Below the pieces are notes generated by a model. It saw nothing but the letters and a program-made list of their open reading frames with translations. It searched no databases and was not told the DNA's origin. Shown here in pieces: positions 39,684 through 42,060 of a stretch of DNA of 42,877 nucleotides. The stretch spans positions 1 through 42,877 of the forward strand of contig JAUNFY010000020.1 of NCBI GenBank assembly GCA_030524805.1, written 5' to 3'. The stretch's first letter is position 1, and every line of letters begins with the position of its first letter. Origin of the DNA: Bacteroidales bacterium (GTDB lineage: Bacteria > Bacteroidota > Bacteroidia > Bacteroidales > Muribaculaceae). Made by a program: the position numbers and the translations under genes.

Positions 39684-39713
39684 TTGTATATTCCTAATAA
39701 TTTATTAATTTTG
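39683..39713 (+). promoter_or_regulatory. Bacteroidetes promoter for the 87-residue protein
   Basis: TTTG (39683-39686), 19-base spacer, TAATTTTG (39706-39713), a full match. The ATG at 39718 lies only 4 bases after the -7 element, at or next to the expected transcript start, so the mRNA is predicted to be leaderless. Confidence 0.75.
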
Positions 39714-39717
39714 TGGT

Positions 39718-39981
39718 ATGGAAGAATCTAAATATCTAAAACTCGCCAAAGAATACTCCATAAAGCAATGGGGATTTGATATTGTGCTTCCTGCTGGGGA
39801 GGAGGACGGATGGCATTATTTCAGTTGTACTCGCCTGAATCGTCCTCATTATGGTAGCCTTCCATCAGCAATTCGTATAAATAGCAAAGGTGAGGTAGAA
39901 TCTTTAGAAGGATATATAATGCGGAGCAAAGTCTCACGTATGGCATATAAATTACGGGATATGAAGAATGTGCCTAACTAA
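39718..39981 (+). CDS. Small protein of unknown function at the island edge
   Basis: I do not recognise this 87-residue protein. It is soluble, mixed alpha/beta, with KYLKLAKEYSIKQWGFD, a GWHYFSCTRLNRPHYG segment and SAIRINSKGEVESLEGY; the last looks like a short beta-hairpin. A full promoter stands directly before it. It converges on the broken toxin gene, and the ancestral end of that toxin frame (39952) would overlap it by about 30 bases on the other strand. A role as the toxin's immunity protein is conceivable from position only; orientation is not the usual one. Confidence 0.65.
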   Translation: MEESKYLKLAKEYSIKQWGFDIVLPAGEEDGWHYFSCTRLNRPHYGSLPSAIRINSKGEVESLEGYIMRSKVSRMAYKLRDMKNVPN

Positions 39982-40077
39982 ATTCACATTCAAAATAGCC
40001 TTATCAACACGTATTAGTTCTATATATTCCATATCAGTAATGATAGCTTCAAGTGTTGAAAATCTATTTGCTGCATT

Positions 40078-40626
40078 TTATACCTGTTCGTCATGTATAA
40101 CTATACGCCCTCCCTCGTTGATTACATTCACAACATGCCCATCGCAGTTTTTAGAGTTTAAGCCGAGCACATATTCACCAGGTTGTGATAGTTGTTTCCG
40201 CAACTTAGTGATTATAATATCATCTGTACCACCTCTTAGAACAGTGGGTTGCAATGGCTTTTTAGTCTTCGGATTGAGCCAAGCTTCTGCGAAATTATCT
40301 CCAAGTCGTTTCATTATTTCGCTTGTATCTTTTTCATAGGCACCAGCAAAGCAGTCAATGCCTCGTCTGCGAGCTGAGAATGCGACAACACACGTTTGGC
40401 AGTTTGATTCATCTTTAAAGGGATTACTCGCTCCGCTATTTGCATCAAGGAAATTCATTGCCTTGATATTTTTCTTCGGCACACCTAACTGTCGTGCTAA
40501 TTCTAAGATATTTTCTTTCTGTATTTCTGTTAGCGTAGGAGCACCTATATTTTCCACAATGGACGCAGCTTCTTTTGCTGCCTTGCGTCCGAGCTTCATT
40601 GCAGCTCCGTAATGTGGGTTAATCAC
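40078..40626 (-). pseudogene. Papain-fold (Tox-PL-like) deamidase toxin domain, broken at both ends
   Basis: The 182-residue open part ends a once longer protein. It holds the papain-fold toxin pattern: NCQTCVVAFSARRRGIDCFAG with the likely nucleophile cysteine, then NCDGHVVNVINEGGRIVIHDEQ with the histidine and the D-x-Q site. Two lesions are visible. Upstream, a one-base loss at 40705-40707 puts it out of frame with the MuF part (40626-41162); restoring it joins PYFIADNKEYVNEALSQ to TIVINPHYGAAMKL. Downstream, TAA at 40078 follows DEQV, yet the same frame continues to 39952 with a family-like end (MEYIELIRVDKAILN). The start at 40626 would be GTG and is probably not used. Family assignment is from remembered Bacteroidales MuF toxins. 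Confidence 0.75.
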
Positions 40627-41162
40627 TATAGTGTTCGTATCGCTTGTTTCCTTAGCGTCTGCTTGCGATAACGCCTCGTTGACGTACTCTTTGTTATCCG
40701 CGATAAATAGGGCGTTGTACGGCGTTTTTCGGCGGCTTCAATGCGGTCGGCGTTATCCTTTACCCAAACCTTAAAATCATCCGGCACATCCTTTATCTCG
40801 TTGATGCTTTCGGTAGAATCTTCTGAATCGTCAGCCCAAAACTCATCTTCGGTCTTCAGGATGGGGATGCAATAGCATAGGCACTGTGGATGCCAGCCGG
40901 TGAATACAAAATCTTTGGGATATTTACCGGCCAACGTGTCGCAGATATCCTCTACATGATGACCATTCCGAGTGGTCTTTATCTTATAGCCTACACGAAA
41001 TCGAACTACTTTTGTGCGTTTCTGCTCACCGAAGCAAAGGAAGGGAATCTCGACCAGCTGCGGATGCACATCAAGTCGCAGGGTCGGAATCTCCATCTGA
41101 TTGTCGGTCGGGAACAGGCAATCTGGAATATATGAGTCATATTTGGAAAGTTCGTTCGACAT
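40626..41162 (-). pseudogene. MuF-type phage head protein remnant, chimeric and frameshifted
   Basis: Residues about 55-150 match the C-terminal part of Bacteroidales phage MuF-like minor head proteins: VGYKIKTTRNGHHVEDICDTLAGKYPKDFVFTGWHPQC (here split in my reading as 55-92), CYCIPILKT and KDVPDDFKVWVKDNADRIEAAEKR. The N-terminal domain of MuF is absent. Instead the first ~50 residues (SNELSKYDSYIPDC, LFPTDNQMEIPTL, VEIPFLCFGEQKRT) resemble the start of a DUF4417-like phage protein, so a deletion probably fused two genes. After PY at 40705-40707 the frame is lost and the last ~25 residues are out-of-frame. Originally the MuF part ran into the toxin domain of the 40078-40626 entry. Confidence 0.7.
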
Positions 41163-41165
41163 TAT

Positions 41166-41196
41166 TTTGTAGTTTGCTGATTATTTATTAATTTTG
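41166..41196 (+). promoter_or_regulatory. Promoter of the candidate small RNA
   Basis: TTTG (41166-41169), 19-base spacer, TAATTTTG (41189-41196). Full consensus match, pointing toward 41199 where no protein gene starts on the plus strand. Confidence 0.65.
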
Positions 41197-41198
41197 CG

Positions 41199-41307
41199 AC
41201 GAGAGGTTAACTGAGGTAGGAGAACCACGAATCCCCCCGGCTCCGGCTGTAATTGGGCAGCAACGCTCTCCGTAACGGCTGAGGTGAGTTCTCGATGCCG
41301 TTTTTTT
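41199..41307 (+). ncRNA. Candidate structured small RNA, family not recognised
   Basis: A promoter at 41166-41196 predicts a transcript from about 41199, and an intrinsic terminator ends it: ACGGC (41275-41279) pairs with GCCGT (41297-41301), with an inner GAG/CTC pair, followed by T7 to 41307. Within the ~109 bases, ACGAGAG (41199-41205) can pair with CTCTCCGT (41266-41273, one bulge), GTT/AAC forms a hairpin around 41206-41225, and GCTG/CAGC (41246-41249, 41258-41261) another. No open frame of useful size lies in it. It does not match any riboswitch or housekeeping RNA that I know. It could be an RNA regulator of the toxin genes on either side. Confidence 0.5.
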
Positions 41308-41845
41308 ATTTCAATTTATGTCGGTGTACATTTCCACTCAAACCTACCACTATTGCCCATTCAATTTTATCTCGTGCTAACTTGGGTGACTTTTCTGAGA
41401 ACAATTGTATCTGCGATTCAACATAATCTCTTGTCATTGCTTTGGTATCTTGTATCAGTACCACGGCACTTGCCCCTTGTTTAGCTGCTGATTCTAATGC
41501 TCGCTTGATTGTGTATTTACCAGTTTCATTAATAGTCTTAGTATCCATTGGATATTTTTCAAAACGTCCATCTTTGACCTTTTGAAACTCAATCTCACTC
41601 CTTTCAGAATCAAGATAAACACGATAACCTTTATTGGCAAGAATATTGCATCGCTCTTCGGCTTTATCGCCTATTCCTGGTGCATTATGTTCAGGATGAA
41701 CAGCCTTGAATCCTCCGCTTTGCGACATATATGAGCGCGACCTATCATATCCGCTTTCCATAAGCTGATTAAATTCACCTTGTCGCTTGGCAAGTGTGCC
41801 GTCACGATGAGAATAATTACGTGTTCCTCCGCTCGCTTTCGCCAT
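41306..41845 (-). CDS. Toxin-like nuclease-fold protein (CdiA C-terminal tRNase-like)
   Basis: The 179-residue protein is soluble and starts with the basic MAKASGGTRNYSHRDG. Its second half has a layout seen in CdiA-type C-terminal nuclease toxins: YRVYLDSERSE, a PMDTKTIN segment that resembles a (D/E)xK site, GKYTIKRALESAAKQGASAVVLIQD, and a final strand IEWAIVVGLSGNVHRHK. Such domains cut tRNA or DNA and often sit at the end of phage MuF proteins; here it is a separate gene. No immunity gene was recognised beside it. The gene is intact and starts 8 bases after the queC fragment end. Function assigned from pattern only. Confidence 0.6.
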   Translation of the reverse strand: MAKASGGTRNYSHRDGTLAKRQGEFNQLMESGYDRSRSYMSQSGGFKAVHPEHNAPGIGDKAEERCNILANKGYRVYLDSERSEIEFQKVKDGRFEKYPMDTKTINETGKYTIKRALESAAKQGASAVVLIQDTKAMTRDYVESQIQLFSEKSPKLARDKIEWAIVVGLSGNVHRHKLK

Positions 41846-41852
41846 ACACTAA

Positions 41853-42038
41853 CTAATCCTCGTATACCGTTGGGTCGATGATACCTGCATCAAGCAACGC
41901 TTCCTTTCGCTCAACACAAGTGCCGCATTTGCCGCAATGTTTCTCGCCTCCCTTATAGCATGAATAAGTTTTGGAGATTATGTGACTGTTTCTGATTAAG
42001 GTTTCTTTTTGCATGTCGTTCAGTTGCACTTTCTTCAA
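41853..42038 (-). pseudogene. queC: C-terminal fragment of 7-cyano-7-deazaguanine synthase QueC
   Basis: QueC makes preQ0 for queuosine in tRNA and, in some phages, for 7-deazaguanine DNA. Only the last ~60 codons are present: [19 protein letters not shown] followed by [20 protein letters not shown], with the four zinc-binding cysteines intact (C-x8-C-x2-C-x2-C). The N-terminal PP-loop ATPase domain (about 160 residues) is missing, and the frame runs into a stop near 42050. Possible starts are TTG 42038 or ATG 42014, neither convincing, so this is a remnant. It marks the right end of the phage-like island. Confidence 0.85.
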
Positions 42039-42060
42039 TGGATTTCTTGTTTAATCCAAA

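What the first reader, a model, noticed from the sequence alone, without database searches (positions are those of the whole stretch)
39952..41162. Decayed MuF-deamidase polymorphic toxin with two separate inactivating lesions
Seen directly: restoring one T in the run at 40705-40707 joins the MuF-like segment to a papain-fold domain in a single frame. After the TAA at 40078 the same frame stays open for about 40 more codons, with a plausible family-like end. The N terminus also looks like a fusion with another phage gene. MuF-linked toxins are a known class, so the novelty is the combination, the evolutionary decay and the possible living relatives with an intact gene.
Basis: partly seen in the sequence, partly recalled or inferred. 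Interest (0 to 1): 0.72.

Follow-up and report, generated by a model that had tools for sequence, protein, structure and literature searches.

The report
Dead phage toxin, surviving immunity gene
A gut bacterium carries the wreck of a phage toxin gene of a known kind, but the small gene facing it tail to tail is intact and belongs to an undescribed protein family that sits beside such toxins in related bacteria and phages and is probably their antidote.

Summary
Window 39952-41162 (minus strand) is a broken MuF head-protein gene with a papain-fold glutamine-deamidase toxin domain (PF15644/Tox-PL1). It has more than two lesions: a deletion of several kilobases joining DUF4417 to mid-MuF, a frame change near 40705 and a premature stop at 40078. 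An intact homologue exists in the same genus. MuF-deamidase fusions are in print (PMC3482391, PMC11699363).

Of 13 loci found by toxin search, 11 have such an ORF, against 17 of 288 control gene ends; of 16 examined in all, 14. These ORFs form one family: held-out profiles rank 16 of 17 first among 5,405 ORFs. No match over cut-off appeared in Pfam, and none in PHROGs or PADLOC (10, 10 and 6 members tested). Hankyphage gene hp22 scores as a member. A Bacteroidales-type promoter box lies upstream of 10 of 17, against 20 of 286 other ORFs. They are probably separately transcribed immunity genes. In five loci the toxin is broken or absent while this ORF stays open. Immunity is inferred, not tested.

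The parts
39718..39981 (+). Candidate immunity gene, 87 aa, convergent with the toxin and overlapping its tail by 30 bp; predicted alpha-beta4-alpha fold
   Evidence: Homologues G017 65%, G064 60%, G067 55%; ranks first with its close group held out, E 7.5e-5; AF2 pLDDT 84.5, pTM 0.75
39684..39713 (+). Bacteroidales-type promoter-like site (TTG, spacer, TAnnTTTG) ending 4 nt before the ATG; the consensus is recalled, not from a call
   Evidence: Pattern scan; background upstream of other long ORFs 20 of 286
39952..40077 (-). 41-codon toxin C-terminal tail left beyond the premature stop
   Evidence: Matches tails of G064 and G017 toxins
40078..40737 (-). Open piece holding the papain-fold (Tox-PL1) domain; PF15644 match at about 40084-40404; NC, GH, DEQ kept; ends at a premature stop at 40078
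40689..41010 (-). MuF fragment (from mid-MuF, with an HPQC-type motif) up to a frame change near 40705
   Evidence: phrog_16625 E 3e-28; blastn/tblastx to G056, G017, G008
41011..41162 (-). First 51 codons of a DUF4417 gene, fused to MuF by a deletion
   Evidence: 88% to G056, 94% to viral L038; break sharp at 41010|41011 against L036, between 41005 and 41014 against L011 and L039
41163..41305 (-). Non-coding stretch conserved in G056; its A/T-rich end also in L038 and L039
   Evidence: no Rfam match at E 1
41306..41845 (-). Open phage ORF (phrog_36422; CdiA_C below cut-off) with N-terminal MAKASGGTR tag
   Evidence: (93% to G056)
41853..42038 (-). 3' fragment (61 aa) of a phage-type QueC gene; the only PF06508 match found in this assembly
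   Evidence: 84% DNA identity to viral L040 over 119 bp

Best explanation
A tailed prophage has decayed to about 2.3 kb between a fimbrillin/DUF5119 locus and a 6-O-methylguanine-DNA methyltransferase gene. Its MuF minor-head protein carried a C-terminal Tox-PL1 glutamine deamidase or protease. In intact relatives this protein is presumably packed in the head and enters the recipient with the DNA (inferred from MuF literature). The gene here is dead: a large deletion, a frame change and a premature stop (shown). Facing it tail to tail is an intact small gene of one homologous family found beside Tox-PL1 genes in Bacteroidales (shown). Because it lies on the other strand, often with its own promoter box, it can be transcribed without the phage late operon and so protect the lysogen (inferred). 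Its product most likely binds and blocks the toxin (inferred). In this genome it survives as an orphan immunity gene that may still protect against related phages or lysogens (inferred).
For: Toxin and MuF identity. Lesions. Intact relatives. Association: of 13 loci found by searching for the toxin (7, 7, the window in both), 11 have a convergent 78-105-aa ORF overlapping the toxin end (read from the lists). By script, taking only the 10 of these with an open toxin ORF of 200 aa or more, 8 of 10 qualify, against 17 of 288 other long-ORF ends in non-redundant loci (one search printed 18 of 289; one of these was a leaked copy of the G563 toxin, L083); Fisher p 4e-8 as computed with 18 of 289. 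The first control (17 of 286; p 4e-11) had let in the L074 toxin and is superseded. All examined: 14 of 16 convergent, adding G572, L074 and hankyphage. One family: with its close group held out, 16 of 17 members rank first in 5,405 ORFs, other family members aside. One blind hit: L074 8208-8438, in a contig fetched for another reason, proved to face a complete MuF-Tox-PL1 gene. Hankyphage hp22, met beside a toxin match, scores E 3e-4. Promoter box within 70 nt in 10 of 17 against 20 of 286. Open ORF with broken or missing toxin: window, G064, G067, G572, G700.
Against: Immunity is not tested; neither binding nor protection could be shown and no complex was modelled. One of 17 members (G016) ranked only 18th when held out, and G067 and G503 ranked first with weak E (0.13, 0.055). 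Two loci (G056, G008) have the ORF on the same strand. In 4 of 4 records opened of 8 non-Bacteroides records, the next small gene is annotated on the same strand and did not match the family; two of these four (L091, L093) show an unannotated convergent ORF too, so the ORF criterion alone has chance hits. No solved structure matches the model at E 0.001. Five broken toxins against no broken partner is biased by gene length. dS is saturated in 3 of 6 pairs, so selection after toxin loss is unproven. Promoter box absent in G064, G067, G563, G572, G033 and in both same-strand cases. The loci are related by descent, so p-values overstate independence.
Confidence: 0.8

Rival explanations
1. The small lesions are assembly or sequencing errors; the real gene is open.
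For: The assembly has 128 contigs and is 95.5% complete; a frame change in a short run is a common error class (recalled).
Against: Against three relatives the DUF4417-MuF break falls at the same place, give or take a few bases, and by itself removes the MuF N-terminal part; stop, frame change and fusion together are unlikely as errors. The QueC gene upstream is truncated too.
Confidence: 0.08
2. The convergent ORF is not immunity but another phage function (for example a regulator or head accessory) that merely sits there.
For: It lies within the head-gene region of phages such as hankyphage; function untested.
Against: It also occurs beside Tox-PL1 or its tail among genes that by eye are not phage genes (G563, G572), and without toxin in G067; it goes with the toxin domain across different MuF backbones (phrog_16625 type and the Mu type of G016).
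Confidence: 0.15
3. The open 182-codon piece is still made as a short stand-alone toxin, and the pair works as a toxin-antitoxin module.
For: Headless Tox-PL1 ORFs of 292 and 298 aa with a convergent partner exist in G033 and G563; catalytic residues are kept in the window.
Against: The premature stop removes a tail conserved in relatives, and by eye the piece lacks the start region of the G033 and G563 ORFs. The toxin model was too poor (pLDDT 52.8) to judge the tail.
Confidence: 0.07

Closest known systems
MuF polymorphic toxins (PMC5576092; PMC3482391; passages seen)
   Same: MuF head protein with variable C-terminal toxin; small gene next to the 3' end; PMC3482391 reports Tox-PL1 fused to MuF in prophage remnants
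   Different: Here the partner gene is mostly on the opposite strand; the methods passage of PMC3482391 counts same-strand operons and examines head-to-head pairs, so tail-to-tail partners could be missed
Bxa and BxaNT homologues in Bacteroidales (PMC11699363; passages and section 7 seen)
   Same: Same MuF type (phrog_16625 is named Bxa); paper names glutamine deaminase versions followed by a small ORF, modelled in complex
   Different: This locus is broken; the words opposite, convergent, operon and orientation do not occur in the held main text; its supplement was not seen, so its partner may belong to the same family
Imm35 (PF15567, YrhB), linked to Tox-PL1 in PMC3482391
   Same: Small alpha+beta protein beside Tox-PL1
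   Different: No profile support: hhalign probability 0.5, E 0.12 against E. coli YrhB alone; no PF15567 hit for 10 members at E 10
Hankyphage (Bacteroides phage p00/jmh43_hp) minor head protein and hp22
   Same: MuF-type protein with a Tox-PL1 match and a convergent partner overlapping by 18 bp
   Different: Gene open as annotated; hp22 is annotated hypothetical

Membership tests
Tox-PL1 / PF15644 | Match to the curated family over its cut-off | tested here: met
   44.4 bits against 24.1
Tox-PL1 / PF15644 | NC-H-DxQ signature (from passages of PMC3482391) | tested here: met
   NC, GH and DEQ in the window; N75, C76, H164 invariant in 6 of 6 aligned pieces (signature)
Tox-PL1 / PF15644 | Deamidase or protease activity | not testable with these tools
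   No assay; the window copy is very likely inactive
MuF polymorphic toxin | MuF head protein N-terminal to the toxin in one frame | tested here: not met
   The window copy is broken and lacks the MuF N-terminal part; intact homologue G017 meets it
MuF polymorphic toxin | Set in the portal/terminase module of a phage | tested here: inconclusive
   These genes are deleted here; present in G056, L036 and L038
MuF polymorphic toxin | Adjacent small ORF as candidate immunity gene | tested here: met
   39718-39981, but convergent
Imm35 | Match to PF15567 | tested here: not met
   hhalign without support
Orphan immunity gene | Immunity gene kept without a working cognate toxin | tested here: inconclusive
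   ORF open and toxin broken; expression and function not tested

The most novel reading that the evidence does not exclude
Bacteroidales phages guard their capsid-borne Tox-PL1 toxins with one undescribed immunity family placed tail to tail on the opposite strand and transcribed from its own promoter, so that lysogens are immune while head genes are silent; bacteria then keep these genes after the toxin decays as a bank of orphan antidotes against incoming phages, the window and G067 being examples.
Probability: 0.35. Interest if true: 0.75.

Novelty: new variant of a known kind. Interest (0 to 1): 0.55.

Why it matters
MuF toxins are a proposed way for phages to carry weapons in their capsids; by the passages seen of PMC11699363, only Apk2 and Bxa had been characterised. 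A conserved, separately transcribed partner on the other strand would explain how lysogens stay safe, and surveys that count only same-strand or head-to-head pairs would miss it. It names a concrete, testable gene (hp22) in hankyphage, which PMC12135933 calls widespread. The window and four other loci with a broken or missing toxin make orphan phage-toxin immunity in gut Bacteroidales directly testable.

Tried and rejected
Imm35 membership of the small ORF: dropped for lack of profile support. Loss of the catalytic cysteine in G017: dropped; the first C of the NC motif is invariant and only the later C varies. An antirepressor deletion between 41163 and 41155: dropped; viral L038 is colinear there without it, so G056 has an extra gene. 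A tRNA or known RNA at 41163-41305: no hit. Empty insertion site in the genus: the listed DUF5119 matches other than the window's own are 26-45% identical, so not resolved. Selection on the small ORF: dN 0.32-0.43, dS 1.3-2.3 in three pairs and saturated in three; inconclusive. Toxin fold: pLDDT 52.8, not used. IMG/VR pattern scans for the small ORF and the close toxin gave none, though an IMG/VR contig fetched by another pattern (L074) holds both, so those scans miss distant members. Named phage records: none for the window toxin piece, the DUF4417 piece or the L074 small ORF; one for phrog_36422; 26 for the MuF-containing ORF. Two weak order-level matches to the small-ORF profile, G435 and G528 (E 0.001 and 0.007, with stops inside), have no toxin match beside them and were left out of the family.

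Full report
Setting. The window is a whole contig (C102) of an assembly of 2.91 Mb in 128 contigs, 95.5% complete. Three relatives of the small ORF are named MAG records, one titled Bacteroidales bacterium and two Muribaculaceae bacterium; their contig lengths equal those of G017, G064 and G067, which the tool places in the window's genus. The stretch 39700-42060 has 42% GC against 50% for the window.

Observation. The 40626-40078 piece is a PF15644 papain-fold toxin domain. The upstream ORF is a chimera: residues 1-51 are the start of a DUF4417 gene and residues 52-158 are MuF. Against viral contig L036 the break is sharp at 41010|41011; against G056 (L011) and L039 it lies between 41005 and 41014. 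Between the two points lie 4.7 kb in G056, holding the rest of DUF4417, both terminase genes, portal and the MuF start, and 6.2 kb in L036, where large terminase, portal and the MuF start are seen. By eye a small indel lies next to the junction. The MuF frame ends near 40705 and the toxin frame takes over. The stop at 40078 cuts a tail that relatives keep. An intact 885-codon MuF-PF15644 frame exists in G017.

Neighbours. Upstream on the same strand lie phrog_36422 (93% to G056) and a 61-aa QueC end, the only QueC match in the assembly, 84% identical in DNA over 119 bp to a viral QueC gene. Window 41011-41864 is colinear with viral contig L038. So the island is a prophage remnant.

The convergent gene. 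ORF 39718-39981 on the other strand overlaps the toxin tail by 30 bp. In 397 genomes of the family 4 carry it, the window included. In G017 and G064 it also faces the toxin (in G064 only a toxin tail is left); in G067 no toxin is found beside it, and G067 is not among the 7 of 111 genus genomes with a toxin match. A scan of the named genome collection found the same three and no more. A profile of the four rows found G563 (E 2.1e-5) and G572 (E 1.2e-5) among 393 genomes of the order; both face Tox-PL1, a 298-aa open toxin in G563 and only a tail in G572 (59% to the G563 tail, E 2e-17). Two weaker matches with stops inside, G435 and G528, have no toxin match beside them and were set aside.

Unbiased count. 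Loci found by searching for the toxin: 7 in 111 genus genomes and 7 in 393 order genomes, 13 distinct including the window. In 11 of 13 the partner is convergent and overlaps the toxin end (for the window and G700 the end of the tail past the stop was taken); in G056 and G008 it follows on the same strand at +103 and +186. By script, on the 10 with an open toxin ORF of at least 200 aa, 8 of 10. Control: 17 of 288 other long-ORF ends have a convergent 70-110-aa ORF overlapping by 1-40 bp (after removing one leaked copy of the G563 toxin from 18 of 289); p 4e-8 for 8 of 10, 6e-11 for 11 of 13, both computed with 18 of 289. One search gave 17 of 286 but had let in the L074 toxin. With G572, viral L074 and hankyphage, 14 of 16 are convergent, overlaps 4-39 bp.

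One family. With each member's close group held out, the rest rank it first in a set of 5,405 ORFs (other members aside) in 16 of 17 cases; the exception is G016, rank 18; G067 and G503 rank first with E 0.13 and 0.055. Identity between groups is low (15-29% to the window). Tested against libraries: Pfam 10 members, none over cut-off; PHROGs 10 members, none at E 0.01; PADLOC 6 members, none at E 0.01. The model of the window protein is alpha-beta4-alpha, pLDDT 84.5; Foldseek found no PDB match at E 0.001 and only weak matches to small uncharacterised phage proteins in BFVD, best E 0.009.

Hankyphage. The L074 toxin domain matches 30 phage records: 21 named Bacteroides and 1 Bacteriophage sp., all 22 listed at 27.9% identity, and Arthrobacter 4, Mycobacterium 2, Microbacterium 1, Acutalibacter 1. 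I opened one Bacteroides record, PV107405.1: the minor head protein and hp22 converge with 18 bp overlap, and hp22 scores E 3e-4 in 1,414 ORFs. In the four other records I opened, of eight, the next small gene is on the same strand.

Transcription. TAnnTTTG, the Bacteroidales -7 box as recalled, lies within 70 nt upstream of the start in 10 of 17 genes, against 20 of 286 other long ORFs and 617 of 21,540 stretches of any kind; six also have a TTG 17-23 nt before it. In the window and G017 the box ends 4 nt before the ATG. The first start codon was used in the control, which blurs it somewhat.

Literature. Passages only: PMC3482391, PMC5576092, PMC12135933 (no statement on this toxin in the passages). 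PMC11699363: passages and section 7. All others only as search listings. Those listings showed no report of tail-to-tail immunity for these toxins; supplements were not read.

Verdict. The finding given is correct and ordinary in kind: a dead member of a known toxin class. The convergent partner family, its likely separate transcription and its survival beside dead toxins are the new part; its immunity role is inferred.

Noticed in passing
window 41306-41845; L037 4328-4873; L040 8207-10767; L051 10175-14207; L067 1175-2370; L074 1261-1776: Phage ORFs share only an N-terminal tag M[AS]K.SG.TR and then differ: CdiA_C (over cut-off in L037, below it in the window), ADP-ribosyltransferase PF03496 (L051, over cut-off), LPD3 (L039) and ParBc_2 (L074) below cut-off. 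L040 has four in a row with a fifth variant (MAKGHGSSR) and two short stubs. It looks like a second tagged, variable cargo family; no held paper has the two tag words. MAKGSGATR hits are another ORF type, by eye YqaJ-like exonucleases.
   Followed up: partly
L012 2204-5656 (G008); L039 3656-6295: The MuF gene carries an intein-like insert, in L012 at the HPxC motif by eye; both match phrog_85 inside the insert and L039 has a LAGLIDADG match below cut-off.
   Followed up: partly
L010 7787-8665 (G033); L079 574-1470 (G563): Headless Tox-PL1 ORFs of 292 and 298 aa keep only the end of MuF, with a convergent partner, among genes that by eye are not phage genes; possible reservoirs for recombination.
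   Followed up: partly
L008 4308-9655; L039 2-6295: The MuF gene lies on the strand opposite to the portal gene in G017 and in viral L039; invertible DNA was not tested.
   Followed up: no
window 41163-41305: Non-coding stretch between phrog_36422 and DUF4417, kept in G056 and in part in L038 and L039, mainly its A/T-rich end; no Rfam match.
   Followed up: partly
window 41853-42038: The only QueC match in this assembly is a 61-aa phage-type fragment.
   Followed up: partly
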